In this document: positions 18,314-52,351 of the stretch, piece by piece | How positions within the stretch are numbered: the first letter of the stretch is position 1 | Layout of the letters: each line of letters begins with the position of its first letter | DNA from: Paramacrobiotus metropolitanus | Lineage: Eukaryota > Tardigrada > Eutardigrada > Parachela > Macrobiotidae | Length of the DNA: 64,000 nt | Assembly (NCBI RefSeq): GCF_019649055.1 | Contig: NW_026570228.1 | Span: 1,860,001 to 1,924,000 of the forward strand | Reading direction: 5' to 3' | The notes under the pieces: model-generated | Seen by the model: only the letters and a program-made list of their open reading frames with translations | What the model was told of the DNA's origin: nothing | The model's database searches: none | Made by a program: the position numbers and the translations under genes

Positions 18314-21300
18314 ATGGCGCTCTTTTGCGCACTGTCTTTGATATTAGTATATGTCCATAATGCTTATTCCTTTTACGGTGTTGGACCGCAGACCTTGGTG
18401 GGTTATTTGGTGAAAGTCGGACAGGATCCCAGTACATTCGTCCCCGTCCCGAATCCCAATTATGGACCGGGTACATACAGTGCCGTTTCCTCGTATCTCA
18501 ACAGTCCCAAACCGTATCCGCCCATTGCCGCTTACTATAAACCGCCGGTGATTGTCCCCCGTCCGCCGTACCTCCCCGGGTATGGGATGACCGTCCCGGA
18601 GGTCATGCAGCCCATTTCCGGCGCCGCTCCGGGTGCCAGTTCGAATATATCCCCAGCGGAAGCCGCCGCCCAGGCTGCAGCTGCCGGTGCCCCACCGGCA
18701 TCGCAAGTCGCTGCCGGAGAAGCCGCCGCCATCGAGAACGGCGTGCCGGCGTCCGTGGCTGCGGAGGTAGGCAGCGAAATTTCCGCCGGTGTCCCTGCCG
18801 GTCAGGCCGTGGCCAACGTTGCCGAAGCCCAGGGCGCACCACCCGCAGTGGCGGAGCAGATCGGAGCGGAAGTGGCGGCGGGTGTTCCGCCCACTCAAGC
18901 CATTGAAAACGTTGCCGGACCGGCGGGACTCGCTGCCGCTATGGCTACCGCCCCGGCCAGCGCATCCATCGGATCGACGGGAGGATATTATTCGGGAGGT
19001 TATTCGTCGGGTTACGGCTCCGTTGCACCGGCCGCCGCCATCTCGGGCGACACGTCATCGGCCGCAGCCGCGGAGCAGGTTGCAGCGGAAGGTGGATCAG
19101 AAGCACAGCAAATTGCTGCTGGAGAACAAGCTGCGGTTAACAGTGGAGTGCCGGCGTCCATTGCATCCGAAATCGGAACAGCGATTGCATCCGGTGCACC
19201 ACCGGCCGAAGCGATCGCCGGAGTAGCCGCGGCCAATGGGGCACCGCCCTCGGTGGCGGCTCAAATTGGAACGGAAGTTGCCGCAGGAGTGCCAGCTGGA
19301 CAGGCCGTGGCCAATGCGGTATCCGGCACGCCAACACCGGCTGCCGTGTCTGTGGCGGCTTATACCTATCCGAAAACCTTAACACGGACCCTGTTGACCT
19401 CTGTTGCCAGTGCAGTCAAAAGACGTTTCCGCGGTTCCCGGCGCAAAGGTAACCTACCCCTGATAGCCTCCCCCTCCTCGTCATACTACGGCTCCGCACC
19501 GGCAGCGATTTCCGGCGCGGGCACCTCATCGGCAGCAGCCGCGGAGCAGGTAGCAGCGGGAGGTGGATCTCAAGCACAACAAATCGCCGCCGGAGAGCAA
19601 GCGGCTGTTAACAGTGGAGTCCCGGCATCCGTGGCATCGGAGATCGGCACCGCCATTGCATCCGGAGCGCCACCTGCCGAAGCCATTGCTGGCGTGGCTG
19701 CAGCGAACGGCGCACCTCCCGCGGTAGCGGCGCAGATCGGAACAGAAGTAGCCGCTGGTGTCCCGGCTGGGCAGGCGGTTGCCAACGCGGTTGCCGGTAC
19801 ACCGACACCGGCTGCCGTTTCCGTGGCCTCCTACGCGTATCCCAAGACACTGACCCGCAGTATGCTGACCTCGGTGGTCAACGCGGTGCGAACGCGATTC
19901 CGTGGTAGCCGACAGAAGAAACGTACTGGTAACCGGCAGTCTATCCTCGGTACCTCGTCGTACTATGGCGCCGCCGCCGCACCCGTCTCGTCAGGGCAAA
20001 CGTCATCAGCGGAAGCTGCCGCCCAGGTAGCAGCGGAAGGTGGATCGCAAGCACAACAGATCGCCGCCGGAGAACAGGCAGCGGTTAATAGCGGAGTGCC
20101 GGCTTCGGTCGCTTCGGAAATCGGTACCGCCATTGCTTCCGGTGCCCCGCCCGCCGAGGCCATCGCTGGGGTAGCCGCGGCCAACGGTGCACCCCCCGCG
20201 GTGGCAGCACAGATCGGAACGGAAGTGGCAGCCGGCGTTCCGGCCGGACAAGCAGTAGCCAACGCAGTTTCCGGCACACCGACGCCCGCCGCAGTTTCCG
20301 TAGCGTCTTATACATATCCCAAGACGCTAACCCGTGCCATGCTGACGTCAGTAGTGAATGCGGTCAAAACACGTTTCGGTCGTCGTCGAACGCAGAAAAA
20401 GGGCAACCGCCAGGCGACGCTGCTGGCGTCCGGTTCAACCGGGTATTACGGAGGCAGTGCCGCACCGGCCAACACAATGACCTCCTCGGCCGCAGCCGCC
20501 GCCCAGGTAGCAGCGGAAGGGGGATCTCAAGCACAGCAGATTGCTGCAGGAGAACAAGCCGCTGTTAACAGCGGAGTCCCGGCATCCGTCGCATCGGAGA
20601 TCGGCACGGCTATCGCCTCCGGCGCACCACCGGCCGAAGCCATTGCCGGTGTGGCTGCCGCGAACGGCGCTCCTCCCGCGGTGGCGGCGCAGATCGGAAC
20701 GGAAGTGGCTGCTGGTGTCCCGGCCGGCCAAGCGGTGGCCAACGCGGTGTCCGGCACACCGACGCCGGCTGCGGTGTCCGTTGCGGCATACAGCTATCCT
20801 AAGACCATCACCCGCGGCATGGCCCTTGCCGTGGCCAACGAAGTCAAACGACGGTTCAGCCGGCGGGGACGCAACCGACAGACGATCGCCGCACAGTCCG
20901 TTGGCCTGAATTCTTACTACACAGCCGGGTCGGCACCGGCCGCAGGAGTGCCGCCAGCCAATGTCGTGGACGCGGAGACGGAGGCGGCCATTGAGTCAGG
21001 CGTGCCGGTCGGTGTCGCTGAGGAGATCGGCTCGGAGGTGGCAGCGGGCGTGCCGCCGGGTCAAGCCATCGCCAACGTGGCGGCGGGGACCGGGGTGTGC
21101 CGTCTTCTGTGGGAATCGGGGCGATTGCGTCGTACTACAGTCCCGGTGGTTCGGTTATCCCCACGCCGTCACCCATTGAGGTCATCGAGGAGGAGGAAGG
21201 CAATCATGGTGGATTAACGCCGGATGGATATTACCAGCCGCCGGCCAGTTCCGGAGGGCTGCCGCCCGCTGTGCAGGAGACCGTGGATGAGGTGGAAGCC

Positions 21301-26133: not shown

Positions 26134-29100
26134 ATGACGAACCCTCGACCAGGCCCCGGTCGGATTCACAAGCTGGACGAGAGTGTCGTTAATCGCATCG
26201 CTGCGGGGGAAATCATCGTGCGTCCTGCTAATGCTGTGAAGGAGATGCTGGAGAACAGGTTGGCAGACTGTGGAACACGGACCAGTTGCTGCTGGATCCG
26301 TTGTTTCTTGCATCCTTCTCGTAGTTTTTTTCCTGAAGACTGGGGTACTGTAGCGTGTGCAGAATTTTACAGTTTATCGCTGACTAATGTTGCTTGCAGT
26401 CTGGATGCAGGCGCGACCGAAATCAGTGTGGTGGTGAAAAACGGCGGACTTGGTATGGTGCAGATCCATGATAATGGCTGTGGGATTAAGGTAAAATATT
26501 TTCACATTTTGTCTGAATTACGCGCGTTGGCAATAGCGTTTCGGTGTTGGGAAGACAGTAATTTTCGATTTAATTTCCCACAAATTCGCTAAACATATTT
26601 TGAGCGGGTTGCTGGAGTTAAAAAATCAGTTAACCGTATATTTAATTTGAAAATTTTTAAATGATCACTTGTCAGTCACTGAAATCACGAGGTGTATCAT
26701 TTCATTTCTTACTTTTTAATCGTAAGATTTAAAATTCACTCTTTTATATGTACTAGAAAACCCGTACATTGCAACATGAATTTGTGCTGTTTTAAATAAA
26801 CAGACTTTTTTGAAATTGGTTTTTAATGGTCTTTTCGCGACTGAGCAAGTTAAATAAAAAAAAATTTTGAATCAAAAAAGAGAGCGCAAAATTGCATAAT
26901 ACCCGTCTGCTTATACTTACTTACTTATTAAGATTTTCGAGAAAACGTTTACGTGGTAATTAACAATGCAATAAAATTTCAAAAACTTGGGATGGATAAT
27001 TACGTATTTATGCTGGTTTCGTGGTTTCTTAGAAAGAGGATTTCTCCATCGTATGCGAACGGTTCACGACGAGTAAAATCGAGAAATTCGACGACATTAC
27101 CCGGTTAACTAGCTTCGGATTCCGTGGGGAAGCGTTAGCCAGTATTAGCTTCATCGGCAAAGTGCGCATCATCAGCCGGACAGCGGACGCGGTGTGCGCC
27201 TATCAGATGGAGTACAACATGGGATTACCCATGGCCGCCGCGAAAGCCCTGGCAGGAAATGTTGGCACCATGATTACCGTAAGTGTGGCGACATTTTGTC
27301 CGGCTGATGTAGTGCGTCAGTGTTTTTTGCCTACGTCAAATATCCGGAGAGTTGTGACATGCGGAAAATAATTTTATATTTTGTCTTTTTAACAAGGCCG
27401 TAATTTCTTCACCTTATTTTTTTGTTAAACCCGTCGATAATTTTGGCAGCTTTGAACTTCTGACTTCTGTCTGGAATGTCTTATTAAAATTGTCAGTAAA
27501 CGGGCAGTTCCTTAATTATCTTTTTGTGGATTTGTTTCTTCAAATTCTTCTTTCTCCATATTGCTACGTGTTTGATTCTCTGTAGGTGGAAGATTTTTTC
27601 TATAATAATCCAACCAGACGCGCCGTACTGTCCAGCGCTGCGGATGAATACGGGAAGATTATGGAAGTGCTGACAAAGTATGCGATGCGCTATCCGCATG
27701 TAGGATTTTCTCTGAGAAAATTCGACCAGCATGCTGCTGATCTGCGCACCCCGGCCAAGTCCACGACATTGGATAACGCTAAAATTCTATTCAAAGATAC
27801 CATCTCGCGGTGTGTGCGCAAAATTCGTCCGGTGATACTATTTGGATTAATCGTCTTGATGGATAAAATTGTTTAATTTTCTTTTCTAGAGAACTTCTGC
27901 CTGTTGAGGATACGAATGACAAATTCCAGTATAAACTAACCGGTTACGTTAGTAATCCCAACTTCTCCACCAAGAAGTACATCTTCCTTTTCTTCATAAA
28001 CGGTAGATACACAATACACGTGCATTGCTTCATCATGCCATCTTTGCGCCTTTTTATTAACTTACTTTTGGTTGGAATAAATGGTTGAATGTACTTGTTG
28101 AATTTACAGGAAGAGCGGTGGAATGCGGTGAACTGCGAAAGTGTATGGAATTACTGTATGCTCCCATATTGCCAAAACAGGGCTTTCCTTTCGTTTACTT
28201 GAGGTGGGCATAAAAATTGAACACGTTTTGATTTGTTTGTTTTCTGTTTATCCAGATTTTTTTCTGTTACACTAATTTGCTTCGTTGTTGCTGTATGTTT
28301 GGCAGTTCATTTTGCTAAAATGGCTTTGTTTATGGTCGGTTTTGGTGCTGTTACTAGTAACTGATTTTCCTGTACATATGTACAACACGTCGGTTTTTAC
28401 AATTTTTTTTCATTTCCGTTTGCTGAAATTTTTCGGTCTGTTTTTACCATTATGCTGGTTTTATTGTTTTTTTTTATTAATTTTCATACTGTGTGTACTA
28501 TTTGTTTTGTGTGTCGTTTTTTGAGATTTTTTCATTTGGTATATTTCTACCGTTTTGATGATTGTAGTTTGGATTTGCCACCCATTCTCGTGGACGTCAA
28601 CGTGCATCCCACCAAAGCCGAGGTGCATTTCCGCTTTGAGAAGGAAATCATCGCCAGCCTGTACACCGCCGTCCAGCAGTGCCTTCTAACCTGCGATCAG
28701 TCGCGCACCTACTCTGTTATCATCCCTCCGGCGCGCACCCTCTCCACCGGCTCCAACAGCAACGAACTGCCGTATCTCAGTCAGGCCAGCACCATCCTGC
28801 CCGACCGCATCACCCCCGCGCGGGCGGTCCGCACCGACAGCCGCCTGCAGACGCTGGACGCATTCATCCGGCCGTCCAGCGCCCTGGACATCGATGTGGA
28901 TGAGGAACTACGCAGTATGGAGACCGCGGCCTCGGAGGTGGTCAGTTCGGTGCTGGCGACCAAGGAGCGCGCCCGGGAGTTTAATTATACCAGTCTGCTG
29001 GAGCTGCGGGCCACCGTGGAGGGCAGTATGGATGTGGAGCTGCGGAAGGTGTTCGCCGAGCATAAGTTTGTCGGGTGTGCGTCGGAGAACACGGTGCTGA

Positions 29101-30580
29101 TACAACATGGGACCAAAATGTTCGCGGTGAATATCAGACGACTGAGGTTGGTCATTTTGTATTAGAAGTAATACTTTTGCCGTTAGTATGCGGGGGAGTG
29201 AAGCCGTCAAGATAAACCGATTTTGAGAACGAAGTACTTTATAAATTAATAAATAATATATATACACACAGATGCTGTCTATGTGAGTAAATCATTTGTC
29301 AGTTGGTACTGAACAGTACTTGAGTAATTTGATGTGATTGTAATCATTTACTTAATATGACTGTGCATTCTGACCAGATGCGGAATGCACGTGAATAACC
29401 AGCACACAGATTTTTAAACATTTCTTTATGAGAGTTAATACTTGAGCAGTTTTGTAGAAAAAAACATGTATATTTTTCAAAAACGATGTTTCTCCAGAGC
29501 CCTTGTTTTCTGGAAATACCTGGAACGCATTTTCCGTGTGAATCGGCTTGTGCTTTTATATATGGACTTATCTCGTGAAATTCTCCTGACTCTGATTGTG
29601 TTTCAAATTTGCAGTGAAGAATTGTTTTATCAGCTGGTGCTATTCGATTTCGGCAACTTCGGTGTGTTTAAACTGGAAAAGCCCTTCCCGCTTCGCAAGC
29701 TGCTGTACTTGGCCATGGATGAGCATAGTGCGACGCCTGTCAGTGATTTGGCGGAAAGGGAACATATCGCCGATAAAGCCACGGAATTCTTGAAGGGCAA
29801 AGGAAAAATGTTGGCTGATTACTTCTCGCTACAGTTTAGCACGGTACGTTCTAACAACTTCGCTAGATTTGTGCGTAATGACTGAACTGGAGCAAAACAC
29901 GAGCTGACATTTAATCGTATTTCACAGCAAGGAAATCTGTTAACGTTACCGATATTGTTGACCAATTATGTTCCACCGTTGTCTGAACTCCCGTTATTTA
30001 TTGGCCGACTGGCGACGGAAGTACGATGGACATCGGAAAAGGTACTTCACTTCAGATTTTAAAGAAAAAAACTTTACAACTTTTGAGAGTATTGCATTGG
30101 TTCTGAAGTTACTTAAAAACTAATAACTGAGATAATAACTGAGATCATTAATAACTGAGATTTCATTTATCATTGATTCTGTTAATTAAATATGCAAAAC
30201 ATTAAACAAAAGGAAAATAATGAAATTTAACTGTATGGTTTTTTCTCGCCTTGTATATTTGTTTATCGTATCGTTTTACTGCATGTTTTAGCCTTTGCCT
30301 TTTATTAGACTTTGTTTGTTTTCGTAAAAATGTTTTGGTCGTTCTTGCTTAGGAGTGCTTCGAAGACATCGCCCGTGAAATCGCCAGTTTCCACGCATTC
30401 TGTCGGGATTTCTACGCGGAAAATGACAATACAGCTGCATCATGGAAATGGACCGCTGAGCACATCATCATGCCGGCCGTTCGCTCCATGCTGCTCCCGC
30501 CCAAATCCATGTGGACGGACAGGATTATTGTGGAAGTTGCTGATCTGCCGAAACTCTACCGGGTCTTTGAACGCTGCTGA
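26134..30580 (+). CDS. MLH1: DNA mismatch repair protein MLH1
   Basis: MLH1 pairs with a PMS partner to form the MutL endonuclease complex that acts after mismatch recognition, and it also works in meiosis. Ten exons fit with matching phases: 26134-26258, 26400-26490, 27033-27278, 27586-27809, 27890-28002, 28110-28203, 28568-29146, 29615-29843, 29928-30041 and 30353-30580. They total 2043 nt, 680 residues, against about 750 in human. The GHKL ATPase motifs are present: VNRIAAGEI with the catalytic Glu and VKEMLEN, DNGCGI, and [24 protein letters not shown] closes the N-terminal domain. The linker is short. The C-terminal dimerisation domain includes [22 protein letters not shown] and the invariant last residues FERC, which complete the PMS active site. 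An AATAAA is at 30804-30809. The gene looks intact. Confidence 0.97.
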
Positions 30581-35800: not shown

Positions 35801-36651
35801 AAAACCCCGATTAGATTAACGTTCAGTATTTACAGGCAACCAAAGCTATTTGTACAGGATACTACGGAGGTGTTGTTTATTGCTACTTGACTGATTCACA
35901 AATTCATGTCGGAAGAAATATCTGTAATAACATTAATAAGAATAATTCTCGTAAACGAAATAATTTTTTTGTTTTCTTTTTGTAGTGTTGAACCTGCGCA
36001 GTAACCGGCTGACATCCCTCCCCAACGAAGTGATCCGCATGACTGATCTCAAAGTGTTGGACATCAGTAACAACCGTTTCACCGTCTTTCCCACCATCAT
36101 TCTGACCATGCCCAACCTGCAGACGGTCATTGCCGAGGAGAACGAGATATCCGGTTAGTACAGACGCTAAACATTCAACATTTAACGCTAAACAAATCAA
36201 CATCACTCGTAACAATATCCCACATCCATCCATTGCGGTAACAATATTACCGCACTGTTATTACTCAGGATACCGGTACAGGTTGAATAATTGCACGTAT
36301 AATTATTCTAAAGTTTACTGCTTATCCATAAATCAGAGTTAATTTGTTTATTATTATTAATCGTATAAAATTAACATAATATCAGTAATTATTCATTTTG
36401 TTTTTCATTTACTGTTATTAATCATATATTATTAATCTGACATGATTATTTATTTTGTTTGGTTACCGATAGACATGGACACGGAAGCGCTGAGCAGTGC
36501 CGGTAGTAGTCTGCAGGAGGTGAACTTATGCAAGAATCCGCTCAGTCAGCGTCTGATCGTCCAACTGGAGCGGATGCACGAGGCCCACCAGTTGAGCTTT
36601 ACCATCACCTACTCCTCACCGTCCGCCGATCATTTCCAGGGAATGGATTAA
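32836..36651 (+). CDS. LRRC20: Leucine-rich repeat protein, LRRC20-like
   Basis: A small intracellular leucine-rich-repeat protein whose family function is not well known. Exons are 32836-32901, 33232-33385, 35986-36153 and 36473-36651, totalling 567 nt and 188 residues, close to the 184 of human LRRC20. Repeat strands read LDLSACTLKSFP, MLEQNQISRLP, LNLRSNRLTSLP, LDISNNRFTVFP, VIAEENEISDMD and VNLCKNPLSQ. The exon 1 donor was chosen by phase (GTTCTG at 32902); the stronger-looking GTAGGA seven bases later would break the frame, so this border is the least certain. Intron 2 is 2.6 kb, long for this window. There is no signal peptide. The order and spacing of the repeats support the orthology call, which I hold with moderate confidence. 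Confidence 0.85.
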
Positions 36652-38651
36652 AGATTGAAAACGCAACGGACCGGTTTATATATGGAGACAAGTGTATCGG
36701 ATGATTTGTAGACATTATTAATTACTCTCCTATTTTTCTTGTTATGTACAGATACATATTTTTTAGTGGATGTGCCCGGTGCATATGAATGGCGGCTCCG
36801 GTTTGTGATGCATGATTTACAGGTGCCTTCTCTAAAGGTCAATGTAGCGGAACCCATGGTTATCAACTATGTGTTATTGTATTTGATTACTTTTTCTCTA
36901 ATATCCTAGTTGGTCCCTGTCTCACTATGTGGTTTTATGTTTCTAACTGTGATAGTTTGTCTGCAGTTCTGTACTGTATAATTGTCTTCTACAATATAAA
37001 GTTGACTAGTCCGTACACACAACTTGATGCAAGTAAAGTGCTTATAGACAATACACGAAAACTAAAAGAAAATAAATTTATGTAGGAAACTTATAATGAA
37101 ACTAAGATTATGGCTTTTGATCCAAGTACACAACTACCGTGAACGAACAATACAATAATATAGTATAAATATGCAATACAGTATTAATTTAAGCAGTCCA
37201 CAATGTATTGTACGCTATTTCAAGTGGGGGTGAACAATATGTGTGCAGTGCAGTGCTGCACTTCATTGGCTCACAACTACGTAATTGCCGGTATATCACA
37301 TAATTTATCGTTAATTCTGATCTACAACACAATGTAAAAAATATTGGGGTAGAATCGTGCTTTAATAACTCCGGTGTGTTTCTTTCTTATGCTTACAAAA
37401 ATATATTTTTCGGGTTTTGGGTACAAAATTCGTGATTTACGTTTAGGAAGCCTAAAGAAATTACGAAGATTATTAAGGCATATATAAACGCTGCAAAAAC
37501 GGAAAGCAAAACTTAAACCAGATGTAGTAACATTATTCAGAAGCTTTTGTACGGTGTAAAATGCTGTATAGTGTATACCGAGTCACTCCGTTTCTGTATC
37601 GTGTATACGGATTTGTTGTTCCTGAATTATTCGGAACTGCCAATTTTGACACATATGTACTCGTACAATATGTATATCCATATAACGATAAGTAATATCT
37701 TTCGATGCCACTTGTGTTATGACGTAATCGCGTCTTTACCAAAATTAATATCCTCGACACAATAGGCAACTCAAGTATAAGCTATCCGTTACCAATAGAA
37801 TATGAAATACAATAATCCGGCAACAATGCCCACTTGCTCAATGTACTGTACAATTTCCGTTGCACACTGAACTTCTTCCTTTCTGTTATAGCGATACTGT
37901 CTAATTTTAAGTAGTACCCATTTAAAAACATAATGTGTACTAAATAGCAAACTTTTGCGTAAGCATCTGTCTGTAATCATAATCTTCACGAGTTGGAATT
38001 ATGTGGCACAGTATTAGGTTTTGTTGTCCCACATGCTAATAATATTTCAGAAACGGTGAGGCCCGCTTCCATTATCGTTAAACTGCAATCGATGTACGCA
38101 CTACGCAGGCCACATAAAGCAGTGTTAATTTTGTTAAACCAGACGTCTGATTATTAGACAAAGGTTACACGCCGCCGCTAATTGCGTTGTTTATTACATT
38201 TGCGTGCGACTTAATTTTTTGGATTTTTTCTTTTGATAAATTGACTGGAACATTAGTTCAGTATGCATACGTTTACTTTCTTCAACACTTGTGCGATTGG
38301 CTGCATTATCTGGATGATAATGCTGAATTCGTCTGCTCATACACTTCCGCTGGATCGTATCCCAAAAATTTCCGGTTTGTGTATATAAAAGACCTTTGCA
38401 TTAGCATAGCAGCAGCACTTCTGCCATTACAGCTATCATAAACTAGCTATCATAAACTGTGAATATTTTCTGAGAGGAGCAAGTAAAACCTGGCGTTAGC
38501 CATTTGTGCGTTCTTCTTATAGCAAATTAGCAACATATACTGTACTTAACCCGTAGACAGTTCCACACTTCCACTTCCATATGTTTTATCTACATAGAAT
38601 GCAACGCGTTTCCTTTGAATTCACACCCCTTATCAGATGGCCGTTTTTCAG
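36652..38651. other. Intergenic stretch, unassigned
   Basis: AT-rich, with no conserved protein. A strong TATA element at 38382-38390 precedes the first exon of the secreted-precursor cluster, but I could not find a signal-peptide exon for that member. Confidence 0.45.
38382..38390 (+). promoter_or_regulatory. TATA box before family-B member 1
   Basis: TATATAAAA lies 262 bp before the recognised exon 38652-38759. No ATG occurs in the 190 bp downstream of it, which leaves the first exon of this member unexplained. Confidence 0.5.
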
Positions 38652-39635
38652 GAAAAATTTCTGAAAGGAGCAAGAGATTTATCGGAACCCGTGGACCCTG
38701 GGGCATCGGAGCGGACGTGACGGGATTTCTTTGGGGCTACATTCTTCATCAAGCATTAGGTAGACCGTAGGTCGTTGTTATAACAGATAAACAATACTGA
38801 AGAGAATTATTAAAAGCTAGCATGTATATCTAGCTATATATAGCATGTAGCATGTATAGCTAGCAAGTATTGTATATCTTTAAATATTAAATTTCGTTGT
38901 CCATTAAATAGCAAGTAATAGGAGTGTCTCGACAATAGCCATGAATGAGTGGTCAGAAAAAACGAACAGTAGAGTCTGAGCACACAAACTGACTGGCTAC
39001 ATTTTTGCTGTACTACATGGTTTAGTGTACAATATATATAGATATACATAATAACCTTTTGGATAATTAAGAAAGCTCTTTCCTGAATCCTGACTGCCTT
39101 AATTGCCTGAACTCTTAGTTGTCTGACAGCCGTTTGAATTACGAACTTAGTATTAAGATGCCTTGTATGCCTTGTATCTGTAATTATAAAATTCTGCTTT
39201 TAAATTGGCCACAATATCAACAGTGGATACTGCACGGTATATATTGCCAAATAAACAATACTGATCTCAATTGTAGGTTACTTGTCTTCGCTCGACTTTG
39301 TAGAAAACCTAGGGTAGTATTTCGGCAAGAAAAAATAATTACTGCCTTCTGAATCTTCTGTATTATATGCAACCTAAATTTTTACTTTTTGCATTACGTA
39401 TTTTACATGTCGGGTTACTTAAGACAAGTTCAAAACTATCGTAACATTTAAAAAATCAAAATTTCGTGACAGTTGCATTAATACAGCTAGGCAGATTATA
39501 TTTACTGCTCTCGGGGTCTGTACGTTTATATGGTACACATGTTCCAGAGTTTACGTTGGAACCCTACTTTATTAATTTGCTTCCTACTTTTCACCAGGTT
39601 CTGGAGCTCTTCGTGGAGGAATAAAACTCGGGTGA
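38652..39635 (+). CDS. Secreted precursor, family B member 1 (partial or decayed)
   Basis: One exon is clear: 38652-38759, after TTTTTCAG and before GTAGAC, starting with two bases and ending with one, as in the sister genes. It encodes KISERSKR, a Lys-Arg site, then GPWGIGADVTGFLWGYILHQ and ALG. The block closely matches member 2 (SPWGVGREVQGFLWGYIL). A possible last exon at 39598-39635 follows a good acceptor (CTTTTCACCAG) and reads SGALRGGIKLG and stop in the right phase. No first exon with a signal peptide was found; the only ATGs between the TATA box and the exon are at 38581 and 38599 and lead out of frame. It may therefore be a pseudogene or have a distant first exon. Coordinates cover the exon and the possible last exon only. 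Confidence 0.55.
38816..38864. repeat. Short palindromic GCTAGC/GCATGT repeat
   Basis: GCTAGCATGTATATCTAGCT, then ATATATAGCATGTAGCATGT and ATAGCTAGC form a compact set of direct and inverted copies in the intron after the family-B member 1 exon. Confidence 0.6.
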
Positions 39636-40152
39636 AGCGGCACTACGGATGTGAAAAATGCTACGCTTTTTTCTAGAGAAACCTTCTCTTTTTTCTAAAG
39701 AAAGCGGCGCACCGCAAAGACACGAAATGGTGCAAAAACGAACTAATCTTTCCGTTAATAACTGTTAGTGCCTAATTTTTACTGCTACCAGTACTTACTT
39801 GTTCGACCACTGCGAGGATTTGTCCACAGTTATTCTTCGTTATTTTTAATCCTCATAAAACGCATTATGTGCTCGTTGGAGTTGACTTAATCTTGTGTGG
39901 TGTTTTGGATTAAACAGTAAACTGCGCTACTCGTACACACTTAGACACTTCCTCATCTTTTGGCTTTCTTAACTACATATGTAAAAATCAACAGTGGTAG
40001 TTTAAGACTAATGTGCACATGGACTTATAGATAATGCCTTAAATTGTAGTCAACCCTATTACAACTATCAGTTGGTTGTAACAGTGTTACATGTACAAAT
40101 ACAAATTAATGTGCAGAAATCTCTCATCGAACTTTGAAGAAAAAGCACGGTG
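39636..40152. other. Intergenic stretch, nothing recognised
   Basis: AT-rich spacer between family-B members 1 and 2 with no open frame of interest. Confidence 0.5.
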
Positions 40153-40160
40153 TATAAAAA
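40153..40160 (+). promoter_or_regulatory. TATA box before family-B member 2
   Basis: TATAAAAA lies 120 bp before the ATG at 40273. Confidence 0.55.
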
Positions 40161-40272
40161 CCCCATGCGCATGTATTTGGGCAGATTAATTCAGCTATAA
40201 TACTTTATGCATACTTGCAGACTCATTAAGCACGTTTTTCTTGGAATACATTATTTTGTTGAAATCTGCATC

Positions 40273-42991
40273 ATGTTTTCTTTTTCGACAATGGCTGTGT
40301 ATGCCTGTTTAATGTTGTACATTATTGGCTGTCCGAATCATTTGTATTTCATGTCGGCATCCGGCGGCGTGGAGGCCCGGGAGTTATCGTTTAATAAGAC
40401 GAAACTGCCTGGGCCCATCCCAAAGATCAATGCAACAGTCTCGAAGGATCCTCCACTGCCAGCTGCTCGAGGTAAACGAAGGCATCAAATTTTTTCCAAA
40501 TAAGTCTAAATCTAAAAGTGCACGCCGGTCTGACAGTAAACTCTGTGCGTCACTATAACTAATTAATGTATTTAATGAATGTATTTAACACTGTATCTGT
40601 AGTACTCTGTAGTCTGTACGTACTCGGTAATTACAGAACTGCAGTACTGAAATTTTTATATTAAATACCAGTGTACCGGTGTAATATTCATATTTTTAAG
40701 ATGTATATCCTTTATTTGTGCTAGGCATCGTTAACAGCTGTTGTTTTTGTAAGTGTGAGTAGTTTTGTAAATTCGACATGAGCTTAATACGGATATGAAG
40801 AACCGTTAAATGATAGCGACATGTTTTAGCAAGAACAGTATTAACAGCAATTCTCTGAATGCCGCCTAAACATTTATATTGAGTTTTTCATCCGTCGGTT
40901 GTTATGATTAAAATATTAAAAGAAGAACATTCGCGGACTCAATACACAGTAAAATATAAATAACATACAAGGCACTCGGCTCCCAGTTAGTCTAATAATT
41001 ATCCATTATCATAATTATATGCTATCATTACTATGTCATTCATGCGGAAAACAGTGCTTTTAGGCTTTATGATATATGTATTGTACGTATTACTAAAAAC
41101 ATGATCCAATGTGCGTATTATGATCAAATTACACGACTCTAAGTACAGGATTAACGAGCATAGACAAGCTATCTCTTCACCAACCGAATACAAACTACCG
41201 GAAGAAATTGTACAACTTGGAGCCCTTCTGTCCTAAACTCTGGATAAACTTGACGATATCCAGGGAAAATCCCGATTCTGACTCGGCCGGCGCGCCCCAT
41301 CCTTGTCCGTTGTGGTATGCCGTCGTGGTGGTCTGAGGACCCCAGCCGGCGCCGGGTGTCGTCGGCCACCAGGTAGTGGTGGTCGGTGCATTCGCATACT
41401 GGCAATTCCATGCACAGTTGTTAACTAAGTAATCTGGACATCCGTCGTAGGCGCGTTTTTTGCGACCAGACGGTGCAGTTGTTGTTGTAGTCGTTGTGGT
41501 CGTGGACGTGGTGGTGGTAGTATCGGTGGTAGTAGTAGTACTGGTTGTCGTAGTTGGGGGGTTAACCCACCACGGTGTCGTGGTGGTTGTTATCCACCAC
41601 GGTGTCGTGGTGGTTGTGGTAGTTGTGGTAGTGGGACCGTTAATGTAATAATAGCAACCGTTCACACTGTTGACGCAGTTATTAAAACACGTATAGTAAT
41701 CCGATCCGTAATACTGCCGGCTTTGTGGAGCGTCACGTCGGCTGCGGTATGAGCCGGATGAGCGGATACGAGCCACCGGTGCCGGATCGCCGCTACCGGC
41801 GTTGATTAAGTAAAGCACAAAAAGTACCCATCTGGCGAATACTGTGCCGGGACTGTATATATCCATGGTAAATATAAAGGTCACGGGTGATCTTGATCGA
41901 GGCGCGAAGTAAAATATGAAGAAAGGAAGAAAGATTGCCGGATAACTGAAGCTTCATATATTTATTTAAACAACTTAAATACTTGAAAATTTGTTGTCAG
42001 ATCGGTGAGTTGATTTTGCCTCCAGTGATTTTCGACTGTTGGTGAGTTACAGAGAGAAGCTTTAGTCCAATAACCTAGCAGATATATAGTGACGATTCAT
42101 TGCCATTTGCGATATTGCAGGATTGCCGTAAAACAGTGTACGTTGACGTTCATGTCGTCGTAATATCGATGTAGTATTACATATCTTAGACATTTTAATA
42201 AAATAATTTAAGTTTAGACGCTGATTTTTTAAAGAACAAATTGTCACAGTGTCTGCGTATCTGTAGTTCAGTTTGTACAACGTATGTGCGTGCATGTTAC
42301 AATGCATGTCATGTTTTTGTGTATACGATATTGTATACGCATTCTGCCGACAAAACGTCATAGCTTACAGCCGTGCACAGTTACACCCAAGACATACGTT
42401 AATATATCTGTATTTTCGCAAAATAATATTTCTTACTATTGCCTAAAGCGAAAACACATCGTTTTTTTAGATTTGATTAGTTAGAAGCCAATGACATGTC
42501 CTAACCATTTTCATGCATTTCGATGCCAAAAGCGAGTAACTATCCGGCATATTTTACCTGCAACTCCTCGTAATTACTGTGACGGGCAACGAACCCTGTT
42601 ACAGCTTTCTCCCTGCATAAAACGCAAGAATTAACGCAGTACTTAACATTCTTTATTCCATACATACATCAACCGTAAGCTTCGAGTAGGAACCTTACGA
42701 ATTACACTACTTTTGCAGATAAATTATTGGAGAGGAAAAAGCGGCAATTTTTCCCAACAGGAGTCAGATCTCCCTGGGGTGTAGGGAGAGAGGTTCAGGG
42801 ATTTCTATGGGGTTACATATTAAGCCAGCTTTTGCAGAGTAAGTACAAAAAAAGGTACAAACTTTGATCTTTACGAATAGGTATAGACATTGCATAATTA
42901 ATAATTATGGACAATTCCACACAAGCGATTGTATAATGATGCATGGTTCGTTATTTCAGCGTCATCATCTTCATCTTCGTCCAGTGGATAA
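40273..42991 (+). CDS. Secreted precursor, family B member 2
   Basis: Three exons are proposed: 40273-40471, 42719-42838 and 42960-42991, 351 nt and 116 residues, all introns in phase 1. Exon 1 gives a signal peptide (MAVYACLMLYIIGC region) and an acidic/Pro-rich pro-segment. Exon 2 begins KLLERKKRQFF, a Lys-Lys-Arg processing site, and continues to SPWGVGREVQGFLWGYIL, shared with member 1. Exon 3 encodes a run of eight serines, Gly, stop. Exons 2 and 3 are solid; linking them to exon 1 over a 2.2-kb intron is inferred from phase and from the lack of another candidate. The unspliced exon 1 frame would run on to ARGKRRHQIFSK and stop, so a separate short protein is the alternative. A Thr-rich gene lies inside intron 1 on the other strand. 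Function unknown. Confidence 0.62.
41195..41866 (-). CDS. Secreted Thr-rich mucin-like protein
   Basis: Reading from ATG 41866, 223 residues follow. A hydrophobic start (FARWVLFVLYLINAGSG) should be a signal peptide. Two short cysteine-bearing segments, YYTCFNNCVNSVNGCYYY (about residues 50-70) and YDGCPDYLVNNCAWNCQY (about 140-160), are joined by a Thr tract in which PWW occurs twice and which likely carries O-glycans. Each cysteine segment follows a basic cleavage-type site (RSRR and GRKKR). The tail, SLDIVKFIQSLGQKGSKLYN, looks like an amphipathic helix. It is intronless, lies within a long intron of family-B member 2 on the opposite strand, and shares the basic-site plus Thr-tract style with family-B member 4. 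A mucin-like adhesive or cuticle-surface role is a guess. Confidence 0.85.
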   Translation of the reverse strand: MDIYSPGTVFARWVLFVLYLINAGSGDPAPVARIRSSGSYRSRRDAPQSRQYYGSDYYTCFNNCVNSVNGCYYYINGPTTTTTTTTTTPWWITTTTTPWWVNPPTTTTSTTTTTDTTTTTSTTTTTTTTTAPSGRKKRAYDGCPDYLVNNCAWNCQYANAPTTTTWWPTTPGAGWGPQTTTTAYHNGQGWGAPAESESGFSLDIVKFIQSLGQKGSKLYNFFR

Positions 42992-43640
42992 CGGATATCT
43001 TTATGGATATACAACAGTGCTCTGTAGTACAATATAAATAACATCCATATTCGCTTAAAAATACTGGTGTTTTGCATTCATATTCCCTTTCTTGCTGAAC
43101 TGCAACTAAACGGACTGTAGTTTTTTTGTGACAGTAATTATTTATTCATCAGCATGGCAGAGATAATTTTCCTACACAACTGCTCAGGTTATACCTATGG
43201 GTTACAGTATTTGAATGAAGAAGAGAATTATGATGGCTTTGTGGAAAAATTATCAGCAGCGACGGCTAAGCCGAATTTGGCTGCTGTCATCAGCATAATT
43301 ATACTCTGTACACTTGATTCGCCGCCAAGTCACGGAACAATTTAAGTTGTTTACATTTTTTCTACAAGTACAAGCATCACAGCAGATCGTAAGTATTGTT
43401 GTAGTGTGTAAAAGTCAGAAAAATTCCATTCATTAAATTCCCTGATAGTTTTTCCAAAAACAGAGCAGCTAAGTGTCTGAAAACACTTCAGCTCCACGAA
43501 AACTCTATGATTGCGTGCGATAAAAATTACAGCCACTGCAGTAACAAACTTTCTAGAACAATTTGTAAACAAAACAACTGTCCAGTTACAACTTCACTGT
43601 AGCGATCGACGACGTACTGTACGCCGGTACGCGTATAATA

Positions 43641-43647
43641 TATAAAC
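43641..43647 (+). promoter_or_regulatory. TATA-like box before family-B member 3
   Basis: TATAAAC, in a run GTATAATATATAAAC, lies 158 bp before the ATG at 43799. Confidence 0.45.
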
Positions 43648-43798
43648 ATTGTAAACACGTCGGTTTTTAGCGAAGCATTTTGCATAAACCTTCTGAACTG
43701 ATCCTAACTAATTGTTCTGTATTCAAAATATTTTTGGATTCTTATAAATTATATACCGAGATTTTCTTTATCTGCGACACGGTCACAACATCTGCACA

Positions 43799-44488
43799 AT
43801 GTGTTCGTTACCGCTCTTTGGAATTGCTCTATTGATATCGCTGCTGGTAGCGCGCAGTGTCACGATGCCGGTTTTATCCAGCGCTGATGGTGATTTTGTA
43901 TTCGATGACCTTTCCGGCCAGCCAAACGGTACGATAAAGTTAAATTAAGTTCCTGAAAGATTTATAACTTTTAATAAAGGATATTTATTACACTACCATA
44001 TTACTAAAAGGTTCGGAAAACAATAGACTGCAAGCATGTGTATTAAATAGGGTGTACGTATTGAATAGGGCATGAGCGACATAAACGTGATCATTCCAAA
44101 GAATACTGGAGATATTACGGATACGGAGGAACGGGACTGTACAATCCATACGCTTACGCTGCACCTCTGACTTCCGATGCTGCAGGTCTGCTAACTGGGT
44201 TGACGTTGCAAAGAGCAATAACGGGTAAATACTGTAAAATTCCCAATGGAAACCAATGTGTCCATTATTTCCTTATTTTAATTTGCTGAATTGTGCAAAT
44301 TACGTACAGGTGATGCTTCGGCAACGTTAAGTCCTTCAGCGCAAGGCCTTCTAGCCGGCATGGCACTACAAAGGGCACTCTATGGCAAGTTTCTCTTTTT
44401 TTTATTTTTAACTTCATTACTACGCCTGCAACGATATTATGATTGATATCATGACGACTTCATACTTTATTTTCAAACAGGAGGATGA
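43799..44488 (+). CDS. Secreted precursor, family B member 3
   Basis: Four exons, 43799-43928, 44069-44224, 44310-44384 and 44481-44488, sum to 369 nt (122 residues), all introns in phase 1. Exon 1: signal peptide MCSLPLFGIALLISLLVARS and an acidic pro-part ending GQPNG. Exon 2: HERHKRD, a Lys-Arg site, a Tyr/Gly-rich YYGYGGTGLYNPYAYAAP part and SDAAGLLTGLTLQRAITG. Exon 3 is a diverged repeat of the end of exon 2: SPSAQGLLAGMALQRALYG, so exon duplication built this protein. The last exon adds only GG and stop. The third intron begins GCAAGT, a GC-AG intron with an otherwise perfect donor. The hydrophobic core LLxGxxLQRA corresponds to GFLWGYILxQ of members 1 and 2. Unknown function; extracellular by signal peptide. 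Confidence 0.78.
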
Positions 44489-45365
44489 CTTGCCCAAAAT
44501 GAAAATATACTCCTGGATTTTACAGCCTAATATACTGCAGTACTTCAGCGCTCTTAACGATACACCTGTACATCTGCAGTTGCAGTGGTGGCGTTTGAAA
44601 AATTGGCACGAAAATACCGTTCCTTATACTTATAGAAATACTTACCATTAGGATATTCTGGGATCACATTTCTGGCATATACTAATTACAGCATGATTAT
44701 GGTCAGATACAGAATATGTGCTGAATTTCAGTATTGTTAACTTAAATTCTATTTTGACATGACGGAAATGTATTCAGTCGATGTGTAAAGTATTTTTGTA
44801 CAGTGTAAATAATAGTTATGTAATATAAAGCCTTCGTTCTTCGTACATACATTAAAGCGATTGATATAAATGATGCATTATATATGTTATTACTTAAAAG
44901 CTGCCACATGCAGATGCTATGTTAAAATAGTATAACTATAGCAAAAGGTGTACAATACTTATGCATGCCTCACAAAGAACGGGCTAGTATTACGTACACT
45001 TATTTTATCGTTTGTCATAACAGTAATTTAACAACACCAAAGCGTTCTGCTTAAAGACGTATCGGAAATTCGGCAAAGGCCGCAACCAGCGCCCGACAAT
45101 ATGCAACTGTGCAATCCATCGAAATTCCAACGTATTTTACCATACGATGCATGCAAAGCTAAGCAGATATTTTGCATACGCATACCAAATTTCGAGGTGG
45201 ATCATTTTCTGCGAAAAAATTGCGCCCTTGAGGGAACTGATGCCACTATTGACAGCCAGTTGTTCTAGTAGGACATCTGCCAAAGAACGCCAGTTGAGCA
45301 TTCTAAAGGTCAACCAGCTGCTTTTAGTGTGTTGCGCTAATTTTTTACATAGCCGGCACGCAAAA
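44489..45365. other. Intergenic stretch, nothing recognised
   Basis: Spacer between family-B members 3 and 4. An open frame from ATG 45147 runs in frame into member 4, but the residues before 45366 do not look like a signal peptide or domain, so I took it as leader. Confidence 0.5.
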
Positions 45366-46386
45366 ATGGTTGGCGGTTATCGATACACCTTGTTCGCACT
45401 GGTTATGGTCACCCTCTTGTGCGGAATGTCCTGCTTGACCTTTGGAAACACCCAGAGTGGAGCAGCAGCGTCGCCTTTCCACTTGGCCGCCATCCCTAAC
45501 GGTAAAAGTACATCAGTGGTCGATGCATGCACGCTTAACAATATTACTTACTGTAATTACATTTTTACGTTTCAGCATTTTTTTTTCTGTGTAACTCTAA
45601 ATGCACAATGTCTTTCTTATAACCTGTCTAACCAACAAGCTCCGAGAATGTGTTGTTTTCGGTTCAGTTGTCCGTTCATTTCAAAAGAACTGCGAATGTG
45701 CTTGCATAATGCATAATTGACTTCAACTATTATAGGCAAAATCTGCGCAACATGAACACTTAACAAATACTATATAAAGTATTTTATATTAATGTGGTCA
45801 TCAACAGGTAACCAGCTGCTGAGCCGAGTAAAACGTGACAGTGGAGAGGGCGGATATTTTCGTACAGTGTACTACCCCAGCTATGGATATAATAATTATT
45901 ATAATTTCCAGCCTTTACTGACGGCGATGCTCTTGAGAAACTTACTTGGTACGTATATTATTTTGGAGAAAAGCACAGACATAATTATGACGAAGTGTAC
46001 ATGGCATGCTCTTTGAAAAAAACAGAAGATGAGATACATTTCTCTGCACTGTAACAGCCTTGTGGTTACATACGTCTAATTCTGTTACTGTAATTTTTGG
46101 TTTGGGAAACTTTTCGTGCAGCTAATGCCGGACACTGAATAATTTGTACTGTAACACTTTTATATGCGAAGAAAATGCTGTTTACTGCGGCTGCAAAGCG
46201 CAAATGTATTTGTACCAAGCATTACTGCGGCTCAATAATTATATTTCGTTTAGCGATCAGATAGATGACTGCAGCGTAGAATTTATTAACGCAGCTTGAC
46301 CTTTTTGTACGTTTGTAATCGTAGATCCGGGGACTCCACCAACCACACCTACTACCACTACGCCCACCACCACAACGAAAAAGTAA
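45366..46386 (+). CDS. Secreted precursor, family B member 4
   Basis: Exons 45366-45501, 45808-45948 and 46325-46386 sum to 339 nt (112 residues); both introns are phase 1, as in the sister genes. Exon 1 encodes a signal peptide (YTLFALVMVTLLCGMSCL) and a pro-part ending AAIPNG, similar to GQPNG of member 3. Exon 2 begins NQLLSRVKRDS, a furin-type RVKR site, followed by a Tyr-rich segment (YYPSYGYNNYYNF) and the hydrophobic core PLLTAMLLRNLL. Exon 3 is Pro/Thr-rich (TPTTTTPTTTTKK) and ends the protein. Upstream in-frame ATG 45147 would add 73 residues. The agreement of phase, cleavage site and core with members 1-3 argues that this is one gene family even though the cores are diverged. Confidence 0.78.
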
Positions 46387-49836: not shown

Positions 49837-52351
49837 ATGGACGCCATCACGGCCTGCAGTTTCGTGGGAATATTTTCCGCCTGTACTGTTCTGTACCGCG
49901 CCTGGCTGTCATCCTGGTGGAAACTTTATCCCGAACGGTTGTATCCGTGTATGGCGTTATCCCTGATACTCCTCAGTGCAGCACAGTGTCTGGCCGCGTT
50001 TGCGCCGTGGACGGTCACGCCTGGCCAGCGGCCGAACCAGACCCGATCGGCCGACGCCAGTGACCCCTTTTGGACGGTGAATGGGACGGATGTTGGATCC
50101 AAGGTGGCGGATGCCGTCTGCGGTCTCCTTTTCCATTCGGTTTGCCTGTGGTAAGTGACTCGTTGACCTTTAAACGAAGGTTGTAATTGTGTGTGGAAGA
50201 TTTTTCTTGATTAGAAACGTTTCTTAATTCAGACCTTTTGAATGTGAAAACTACTGGGTTTTGTTCGGACTTCGAACTGTAGCCTTGTTTTTTCGCTGAT
50301 GAAATCAATGGTTCACGTTGATTTTTCTTAAATAACTGAATAACTGTGTTGTTCAGTCCTTTTGCAGCTTCTTGTCCTAATTAATCATACCATTATTAGT
50401 TTATTATATTAATTTATTAAGATTACATCTAATATCTATTATTTAATCGTATTTTCTGTAATTACCGTATACTGATTTCGTCCCTTATTTTACCGCTGCA
50501 GCAAATAAAATGGTTTGTTGACTGTTGAGCTGCCTGAATTTTGTCGAAGCAATTACTGTATTTTATCAATTAGTGACCCTCCCCGATTTAGAAGCCCTCC
50601 CCGAAATACAAACCCCATGCTCAACCGTTACGAACTTTATAAGCAGGGCTGGTAAAAAGTGGTAAAAGCAAAAGCGGCACCAGTTAAAATTACACTAGTT
50701 CCATGTAAAAATAATGTGATCTAGTGAATGGCATTGTAATTAGTTTCATAAATGACGCGTAGACTGGGTAATGAACGTTTTTTAACATAATTACTTATTA
50801 TGGGCTTTATTGGGATTAATAATAATACATAAAATCTTTCTCTTAACAATAACAAATCGAATAAAACATGTTCAACGCTAATCCATTTAGCTTGCATAAA
50901 TAATAATAACCCTTCACGAATTACAAGCCCTCCCCGAAATAAAGACCCCATCCGAAACCTTTACGATGAAGTAGTAACGCTGGGTCACTATTTGATAAAA
51001 TACGGTATGGTTAGTTCGTTAATTTACTGATTATTTTCAAAGCAGCGCAAGGTGCTTCCGCCTTCCAGTTCCGACGTTGAGCTTGTACCGCGACAGTTCT
51101 GCCCTTGCATTTAATCTGCGTTCGTATTGATCAGCTTGGTAGTAATTACTAATTACTGGTCAATTTATGCCATATATGTATGGCACTATTGTGTAACACG
51201 TAATAAGACGCTTTAAAATATTCGCAGTGTGTTGCATTTGTATGAATCTGCGCTGCACGTATTGTTAAATTCAGTTCTGTACACGAAAATTTTTTAATCA
51301 TTACGAATGGAATTTAACTGACAGTTCCTTTCGCAGCTGGCAATTGTTGTCAATAAGTATGGCATTAATGTGTAGCACGTATAATAATTATAAATGAAAT
51401 AGAATAGCAGTTCAAAATGGTTTTTGATTTTTCCTAAAAGCATATGAAACGCGTTAAATTATTCGCAGTATATCTATATAATATTTAGTACGAGTATGAA
51501 TGTGCGCTGCAGGTTTTGTAAAATTCGTTCCGTGATCAATATTTTTTAATCATTTTGAATGGAATTTAAATGACAGTTACTTTCGCAGGTGGCTACTGTT
51601 GTCTATGTGGTGGTTCCTGTCCACCAGCAGAATGTGGAGTCAGGAGGCCTTTTCCGGTATTTTCGGGCTATACCACGGCCCCATTGCGGTCTGGGCCAGC
51701 GCCGCGGGCTTGTCCATCCTGGAGTTTGTCACTAACCAAGTCGCTGACGCTGCCCTTCTTCCACCATCGGCGCAGACGGCCGTTATCATCGTCAGAGCGT
51801 TCCCGCTTGTGATGTGCCTCTTCACCGGAACGGGACTCAGCATTGCCGGCTACCGAGCCGGCCTCACCATCGCGCAGCATCTAGCCGTGGCCAACGATCA
51901 CGAACTGCGCGTTCTGCTGCGGAAATTGTGCGTAGTGTCTTCCGTGTTCGCCGTGATTTTGTCCGGGTATATAGTCTTGACTGTCGGCCAGCTTGTTAAT
52001 CCATCACCGGGACTACGATATGGGTTGCATCTACTGCCGCTGCTGCTGGCGGCATCCTGTGGTTGCTGGTTGTCGGCCGTTATCGCGCGCCCGGCGGCAC
52101 AGCCAGCCATCAAAGCTCCCGCCCTGTCCCATTCATCGACCAGCCGCAGCTGCGCCGTGCAGACCGCGGATTACCTGTTGAGTTTTCTGGACGATGGGAT
52201 CAGCCCGGATGATTCTGTTTCGCAGTTGTCAGTGTCTGCGGCAGATTCTGACAAGGCTCTGGATCATAATCACGACGTGGTGATTGATCACCAGAAAGTT
52301 GGGGGCTTGCTGTCGCTGCCCAGTTTACAGTCGGTTAACGAATGCGCTTGA
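49837..52351 (+). CDS. Frizzled-like seven-pass membrane protein without cysteine-rich domain
   Basis: Two exons (49837-50150 and 51589-52351, joined in phase 2) give 358 residues. The segment FSACTVLYRAWLSSWWKLYP followed by ERLYPCMALS matches the Frizzled TM1-TM2 loop with its YPER signature, and WWLLLSMWWFLSTSRMWSQE then AF matches TM3 and the following loop (WW...WFL...W..EA). Further hydrophobic stretches at about residues 145-170, 180-205, 225-250 and 265-285 complete about seven passes. There is no Wnt-binding cysteine-rich domain and no signal peptide in these exons. The KTxxxW motif after TM7, which recruits Dishevelled, is absent (CWLSAVIARPAA instead). The cytosolic tail is Ser/Asp-rich. 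A TAG 12 nt before the ATG could be part of an acceptor, so upstream exons cannot be excluded. Family call is by eye. Confidence 0.62.
50554..51006. mobile_element. MITE-like element with 24-bp inverted ends and TA flanks
   Basis: The left end CTGTATTTTATCAATTAGTG then ACCC (50556-50579) matches the reverse complement of the right end (50981-51004) with two mismatches. Each end is bordered by TA, as in Tc1/mariner insertions. About 450 bp long, with no transposase frame. It carries two direct copies of AAGCCCTCCCCGAAATA (about 50591 and 50926). It sits in the intron of the Frizzled-like gene. Confidence 0.78.
51170..51605. repeat. Tandem duplication spanning a splice acceptor
   Basis: Two diverged copies, offset by 252 bp, both contain AATGGAATTTAA, TGACAGTT, CTTTCGCAG and an ATTGTTGTC or ACTGTTGTC segment. 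The second copy holds the acceptor actually used (CAG at 51586-51588). The first has a CAG at 51334-51336 that could act as a cryptic acceptor. Confidence 0.75.

What the first reader, a model, noticed from the sequence alone, without database searches (positions are those of the whole stretch)
38652..46386. A cluster of short secreted precursors with phase-1 modular exons and a conserved hydrophobic core
Four plus-strand genes or gene parts share the same plan. An exon 1 with signal peptide and pro-part ends with one base of a Gly/Asp codon. Exon 2 starts about 4-8 residues before a Lys/Arg site (SKR, KKR, HKR, VKR) and ends in a hydrophobic core: GFLWGYILHQAL, GFLWGYILSQLL, GLLTGLTLQRAI/GLLAGMALQRAL, PLLTAMLLRNLL. 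A tiny last exon adds a low-complexity tail (Ser8-Gly, Gly-Gly, Pro/Thr). All introns are phase 1, so exons can be duplicated without breaking the frame. The matching phases in diverged copies are strong evidence of descent from one gene. Processing at the basic site would release a short hydrophobic peptide; hormone, antimicrobial or structural roles are all open. I know of no named family with this core.
Basis: partly seen in the sequence, partly recalled or inferred. Interest (0 to 1): 0.85.

Follow-up and report, generated by a model that had tools for sequence, protein, structure and literature searches.

The report
Tardigrade family of furin-cut secreted peptides
A water-bear genome carries a small family of genes, four of them side by side, for short secreted-looking proteins that seem built to be cut at an Arg-x-Lys-Arg site, freeing a water-repelling helix with a short, often Ser/Thr/Pro-rich tail; no known family was found for it and its job is still a guess.

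Summary
The window lies in a 169.8-Mb genome whose size and three TPS loci fit the tardigrade Paramacrobiotus metropolitanus. Four plus-strand genes (A-D, 38263-46386) share a signal-like first exon, phase-1 introns, a second exon with a basic site near its start and a hydrophobic core at its donor, then a short tail. The basic site is an exact furin-type R-x-K-R in 6 of 6 genes. Genome searches gave two more complete copies, E (contig 43) and F (contig 80), with the same plan. Homology of A, B, E and F is shown by sequence; C is supported by post hoc donor-anchored tests, D less strongly; an ordinary profile sees neither. AlphaFold2 makes the core of A a 19-residue helix; GxxxG stands in 6 of 7 cores. 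Pfam has no match; the one PDB search (gene E) gave nothing convincing. Most likely these are precursors of small hydrophobic-helix peptides, freed by a furin-like protease, that assemble outside the cell as a coat or matrix. Secretion, cutting and assembly are inferred. No transcript data could be checked.

The parts
38263..38374 (+). Gene A exon 1: signal-like peptide and pro-part, ends phase 1 at GTTTGT
   Evidence: hydrophobic 11-mer 2.60
38652..38759 (+). Gene A exon 2: RSKR site and GFLWGYILHQAL core; reads on to GRP-stop at 38770 if the weak phase-1 donor GTAGAC is not used
38699..38755 (+). Predicted 19-residue helix of A (exon-2 residues 16-34)
   Evidence: AlphaFold2 on 2 sequences; block means of pLDDT 65 (residues 11-20) and 88 (21-35)
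39598..39635 (+). Possible tail exon of A (GSGALRGGIKLG-stop)
   Evidence: phase and acceptor only; no homology support
40273..40471 (+). Gene B exon 1
42719..42838 (+). Gene B exon 2: RKKR site and GFLWGYILSQLL core
42960..42991 (+). Gene B tail exon (TSSSSSSSSG-stop)
43799..43928 (+). Gene C exon 1
44069..44224 (+). Gene C exon 2: RHKR site, Tyr-rich stretch, GLLTGLTLQRAI core
44310..44384 (+). Gene C exon 3: second core GLLAGMALQRAL, followed by a GC-AG intron
44481..44488 (+). Gene C last exon (GG-stop)
45366..45501 (+). Gene D exon 1
45808..45948 (+). Gene D exon 2: RVKR site, Tyr-rich stretch, PLLTAMLLRNLL core
46325..46386 (+). Gene D tail exon (Pro/Thr-rich, ends KK-stop)

Best explanation
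A paralogous family of at least six tardigrade genes (four here, E on contig 43, F on contig 80) encodes short precursors. Shown by sequence: common descent of A, B, E and F, open phase-1 exon modules, an exact R-x-K-R site, a conserved hydrophobic core, short tails, and constraint on the protein. Inferred: the precursor enters the secretory path, a furin-type convertase cuts after R-x-K-R, and the freed peptide of about 30-72 residues packs through its hydrophobic, GxxxG-bearing helix into oligomers while the Ser/Thr/Pro-rich tail of B, D, E and F (possibly O-glycosylated) stays exposed. The cut thus times assembly of an extracellular coat or matrix (cuticle, egg or gland secretion); the Tyr-rich stretches of C and D would suit cross-linking.
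For: Genome search with B exon 2 finds A (E 2.3e-7) and E (3.3e-7) but does not list F; with E exon 2 it finds A (1.2e-10), B (4.0e-7) and F (5.0e-6). A degenerate pattern for G-[LF]-[LF]-W-G-Y-I-L meets exactly three places in the genome, A, B and E, and its reversed control none. E and F have complete three-exon models, phase 1. R-x-K-R in 6 of 6. In the six pairs of A, B, E, F third codon positions differ in 18 of 32 to 29 of 37 codons while positions 1+2 differ in 17 of 64 to 27 of 64; dS could not be computed in 5 of 6 pairs, which I read as saturation, and was 1.33 in the sixth: old coding sequence under constraint. Core predicted helical in A (residues 16-34) and in D (34-45, lower confidence). 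Mean hydrophobicity of the 20-residue stretch is 0.38-0.57 for A, B, E, F with helical moment 0.05-0.13, fitting a packed helix more than a surface-seeking one. GxxxG at the same place in 6 of 7 cores.
Against: No transcript, peptide, localisation or signal-peptide prediction. The helix models rest on two and four sequences. The cores of C and D are less hydrophobic (0.17-0.28). A D or E lies inside the helix stretch of A, B, E and F. C and D are at noise level in an ordinary profile search. GxxxG is a common motif (recalled), and a full GxxxGxxxG is present only in E and F (2 of 7 cores; D has no GxxxG). Nothing found here places the product in a cuticle, egg or gland.
Confidence: 0.45

Rival explanations
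1. Host-defence peptides: the cut frees a membrane-active helix, some copies perhaps amidated from a C-terminal Gly before the stop.
For: Tandem, diverged small precursors; B, C, F and the spliced form of A end in Gly-stop.
Against: Net charge of the mature part is only -1 to +2 in six genes and the helical moment is low (0.05-0.19 over 20-21 residues, 0.14-0.29 over the last 13), unlike typical cationic amphipathic peptides (recalled); D and E do not end in Gly.
Confidence: 0.2
2. Signalling peptides (hormone or neuropeptide-like): the freed peptide acts on a receptor.
For: Prepro layout with one R-x-K-R site; terminal Gly in several copies.
Against: No Gly followed by two basic residues in the mature part of any of the six (read; D ends in KK without Gly); hydrophobic products with low-complexity tails; copies differ strongly in length and in the stretch after the site; no known neuropeptide motif recognised (recalled, no peptide library searched).
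Confidence: 0.1
3. Salivary or gland secretion used in feeding.
For: Small, diverged cluster of secreted-looking proteins; the strain is reared on an alga and a rotifer (PMC8277472, passage).
Against: No cysteine in the mature parts and no Pfam match; no tissue data.
Confidence: 0.07
4. C and D are not homologous to A/B/E/F; only A, B, E and F are a family and the likeness of C and D is convergence on a common secreted layout.
For: The profile from A/B/E/F scores C2 and D2 3.8 bits and C3 3.0, within noise; genome searches with C2, D2 and C3 return only themselves; D2's core score (11.0) is below the 15 used in the Markov control.
Against: Donor-anchored scores: C2 and C3 0 of 20000 shuffles, D2 74 of 20000; ranks 4, 5 and 8 of 2676 donor ends; similar R-x-K-R offset and same phases; tandem position.
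Confidence: 0.18

Closest known systems
Furin-activated self-assembling extracellular proteins (cuticlins and other ZP proteins; recalled)
   Same: Secretory precursor with an R-x-K/R-R type site whose cutting could permit polymerisation
   Different: No Pfam match, so no ZP domain; only 76-122 residues
Low-complexity secreted protein families of the C. elegans pharyngeal cuticle (PMC9629831, passages seen)
   Same: Short secreted proteins with low-complexity stretches in an ecdysozoan, as a type of matrix component
   Different: That secretome is described as biased against charged and hydrophobic residues (passage); the core here is hydrophobic; the word furin does not occur in that text
Glycine-zipper two-peptide bacteriocins CdzC/CdzD of Caulobacter (PMC5380434, passages seen, one of them from the abstract)
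   Same: Small secreted hydrophobic proteins with GxxxG repeats
   Different: Bacterial, type I secretion, extended zipper of small hydrophobic residues; here animal, furin-type site, a full GxxxGxxxG only in E and F, bulky residues inside
Cationic amphipathic antimicrobial peptides of arthropods (recalled)
   Same: Prepropeptide plan, helical mature part, terminal Gly in some
   Different: Near-neutral charge and low hydrophobic moment

Membership tests
The proposed family itself | Exon 2 with R-x-K-R shortly after a phase-1 acceptor | tested here: met
   6 of 6 genes; for E this rests on choosing the nearer of two possible acceptors
The proposed family itself | Core similarity beyond chance | tested here: inconclusive
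   Met for A, B, E, F and, by a post hoc test, C; marginal for D (74 of 20000 shuffles; rank 8 of 2676); C and D not seen by a profile
Secreted proteins | N-terminal signal peptide | tested here: inconclusive
   Hydrophobic 11-mer 2.38-2.90 in exon 1 of 6 of 6; no predictor run
ZP/cuticlin | ZP domain | tested here: not met
   No Pfam family up to E 1 in 6 proteins
Cationic amphipathic antimicrobial peptides | Clear positive charge and amphipathic helix | tested here: not met
   Charges +2 (A in its spliced form), +1, 0, +1, 0, -1 for A-F; moment 0.05-0.19 over the 20-21-residue stretches
Cdz-like glycine-zipper bacteriocins | Extended GxxxGxxxG with small hydrophobic x | tested here: not met
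   Full motif in 2 of 7 cores, x includes D, W, F
Neuropeptide precursors | Peptide followed by an amidation Gly and a basic cleavage site | tested here: not met
   No Gly plus two basic residues in 6 of 6 mature parts, read by eye; Gly-stop in B, C, F and spliced A
Any described protein family | Match in Pfam or a solved structure | tested here: not met
   Pfam 0 of 6 proteins; PDB best E 0.32 for the one protein tried, E. NCBIfam was not searched

The most novel reading that the evidence does not exclude
An animal has independently evolved glycine-zipper peptides: hydrophobic GxxxG helices kept inert as a precursor and released by a furin-type cut to form oligomers on a surface or in a membrane, working like the zipper peptides of bacteria but encoded by phase-1 exon cassettes in a tardigrade, perhaps tied to its drying coat or its defence.
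Probability: 0.12. Interest if true: 0.75.

Novelty: new variant of a known kind. Interest (0 to 1): 0.45.

Why it matters
Few protein families of tardigrade outer layers and secretions are characterised, as far as I recall. A compact family with a clear cut site and a short predicted helix can be synthesised whole and tested, and the exon cassettes, with an old internal core duplication in gene C, give a case of phase-1 module duplication. If the peptides assemble on cutting, they are candidates for cuticle, egg or tun surface material; if they attack membranes, they would be a tardigrade defence of an unusual, uncharged type.

Tried and rejected
An ordinary profile of A/B/E/F against 3627 phase-1 candidate exons put C2, D2 and C3 at noise level (3.8, 3.8, 3.0 bits). 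The donor-anchored tests (3654 candidates, slightly wider donor rule) and 56 were designed after seeing this, so they are post hoc. In one search F's own full exon is not in the printed lists; it ends one residue short of the anchor used, so the test misaligns it. The first-exon pro-parts were compared pairwise: none of 15 pairs is convincing (best 114 of 2000 shuffles), so likenesses of A to B (IPKI) and C to F (MPV) are not claimed. E has a second possible acceptor upstream (L002 4939) that would lengthen exon 2 by 17 residues; I took the nearer one because it fits the family. Neighbouring genes with an LVGYLVQVG-like N-terminus (9986-21217) and 35904-36257 were tested as relatives: a core profile gave the first four no match at E up to 100 and the last 0.8 bits, so they are kept apart. 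That profile was built from the A-F cores themselves, so its good scores for A-D prove nothing. TATA-like boxes lie within 300 b upstream of 4 of 6 first exons (B, C, E, F; background 46 on the window's plus strand, 0.22 per 300 b); one of the three patterns was chosen after seeing E, and A has none there but one inside its intron, so this is weak. Scans of viral contigs (15 pattern matches) and prokaryote genomes (71) gave no relative confirmed by tblastn; they are not collections of animal genomes, so this says nothing about other tardigrades. Literature: 0 papers hold the string GFLWGYIL, and no such tardigrade family appears in the listed titles and abstract openings (15 of 80; 10 of 30; 10 of 36; 12 of 457); these cover only open PubMed Central text. 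Organism: published assembly 170.48 Mb in 684 scaffolds with three TPS-TPP genes (PMC8277472, passages) against 169.8 Mb in 533 contigs and TPS matches on three contigs here (67, 208, 84; 7 matches); this is an inference.
Full report
What is there. The window is G000 contig 8, 1860001-1924000, of a 169.8-Mb genome. Its size and the TPS matches on three contigs fit the published Paramacrobiotus sp. TYO assembly, 170.48 Mb with three TPS-TPP genes (PMC8277472, passages seen). The organism is therefore most likely Paramacrobiotus metropolitanus, a tardigrade; this is an inference.

Gene models. A: 38263-38374, 38652-38759, and either read-through to a stop at 38770 or a possible tail exon 39598-39635. 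B: 40273-40471, 42719-42838, 42960-42991. C: 43799-43928, 44069-44224, 44310-44384, 44481-44488, with one GC-AG intron. D: 45366-45501, 45808-45948, 46325-46386. Every modelled intron is phase 1.

Further copies. Searching the whole genome with B exon 2 found A (E 2.3e-7) and a new place on contig 43 (3.3e-7), but not F. Searching with A exon 2 added a place on contig 80 (E 0.0024), which the contig-43 exon finds at 5.0e-6. A degenerate pattern for the core meets three places in the genome, A, B and E, with none for its reversed control. Reading the new places gave full genes: E, at L002 minus 5167-5023, 4888-4778, 4660-4611, and F, at L003 minus 4862-4742, 4182-4087, 3930-3905. Both have a signal-like first exon, phase-1 splice points, R-x-K-R, the GFLWG core and a Ser/Thr/Pro/Ala-rich tail. 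E has an alternative upstream acceptor. Genome searches with C2, D2 and C3 returned only themselves. The search scores only its best candidates, so six is a lower bound.

The cut site. All six genes carry an exact R-x-K-R: RSKR, RKKR, RHKR, RVKR, RAKR, RSKR. Its first Arg is residue 4 to 7 of exon 2, the split codon counted. This is the furin consensus (recalled).

Chance. Of 3654 open phase-1/phase-1 candidate exons in the window, 34 have R-x-[KR]-R near the start; ordered by likeness of the last residues before the donor to the A/B/E cores, A2, B2, C2 and D2 come first with 62.7, 60.0, 19.7 and 11.0, the next at 2.7. A2 and B2 are partly matched to themselves. Without the basic-site condition C3 and C2 come third and fourth and D2 is not among the 14 places printed. 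Twenty Markov windows gave a mean of 5.9 places with such a site near the start (maximum 10), and in 0 of 20 did any of these reach a core score of 15, a mark that C2 passes and D2 does not. Over the window and four loci (2676 donor ends) C2, C3 and D2 rank 4, 5 and 8; shuffles of their own letters reach the score in 0, 0 and 74 of 20000. Against this, a normal profile of A/B/E/F gives C2 and D2 only 3.8 bits and C3 3.0, inside the noise. I take A, B, E and F as shown, C as very likely, D as likely. Random anchors have a signal-like phase-1 first exon within 320 b upstream in 154 of 4000 cases, 343 within 600 b and 992 within 2300 b; A, C and D have one within 320 b, B at 2247 b. The rules of that control were set after seeing the genes. 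E (134 b) and F (559 b) were read by eye and not put through it.

Selection. In the six pairs of A, B, E and F, third codon positions differ in 18 of 32 to 29 of 37 codons, first plus second positions in 17 of 64 to 27 of 64; dS could not be computed in 5 of 6 pairs, read as saturation, and was 1.33 in the sixth. The exon is old, coding and constrained. The pro-parts of exon 1 show no significant likeness, so the conserved function probably lies after the cut.

The mature part. It has 31 to 72 residues and net charge -1 to +2 with A in its spliced form; A's read-through form would leave 30. AlphaFold2 gives A exon 2 a helix over residues 16-34 (pLDDT block means 65 for residues 11-20, 88 for 21-35; two sequences) and D exon 2 a helix over 34-45 (block means 74 and 81; four sequences). 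The core of A, B, E and F is hydrophobic (0.38-0.57) but hardly amphipathic; those of C and D are less hydrophobic (0.17-0.28). GxxxG stands at the same place in 6 of 7 cores; D has PxxxA; GxxxGxxxG is complete only in E and F. In C a second core sits in its own phase-1 exon (27 of 51 bases equal, 5 of 17 third positions equal).

What it most likely does. A signal-like start, a furin-type site, a packing-prone helix and, in B, D, E and F, an exposed Ser/Thr/Pro tail fit a precursor whose cutting starts assembly outside the cell. Cutting, secretion and assembly are inferred, not shown. The low charge and low moment speak against a classical antimicrobial peptide, and the lack of an amidation-plus-basic site after the core against a classical neuropeptide. 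Tyr-rich stretches in C and D would suit a cross-linked matrix.

Comparison. Pfam has nothing for the six proteins at E up to 1; a PDB sequence search with E alone gives only E 0.32 and 0.95. Bacterial glycine-zipper proteins CdzC/D (PMC5380434, passages) are an analogy only. The C. elegans pharyngeal-cuticle secretome (PMC9629831, passages) has short low-complexity families but is described as biased against hydrophobic residues. The family is new to Pfam and to the PDB search made; the kind (small processed secreted peptides) is known.

Noticed in passing
window 41195-41953 (-), inside intron 1 of gene B: A nested opposite-strand open frame for a secreted-looking protein with RSRR and RKKR sites, Tyr/Cys modules and long Thr runs; 12 genome matches (pieces, not genes) including itself, on contigs 8, 94, 95, 208 and 266; those on contig 208 lie within about 6 kb. 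No Pfam match.
   Followed up: partly
window 9986-11533 (-), 12591-13151, 14235-16370, 18287-21217 (+): A second cluster of low-complexity secreted-looking proteins sharing an N-terminal motif like TLVGYLVQVGxSPSxFVP; the search with one of them gave 6 matches including itself, two outside this cluster, at C8:1411005 and on contig 170. 35904-36257 (-) has a similar LTGYLVLLGN but is not among those matches.
   Followed up: partly
window 38382: A TATA-like box (TATATAAAAG) lies inside the proposed intron 1 of gene A, about 270 b before exon 2; A has none in the 300 b before its first exon. An alternative promoter or a wrong first exon for A is possible.
   Followed up: partly
window 12591-13151 (+) and 9986-11533 (-): Two proteins of the second cluster, on opposite strands, end in nearly the same letters (KAIFPR-stop and RAVFPR-stop) after a basic stretch.
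   Followed up: no
window 8030-8815, 28365-29165, 51536-52351 (+): Ordinary genes nearby: deoxynucleoside kinase, Mlh1-type mismatch repair and Frizzled-type membrane region by Pfam.
   Followed up: no
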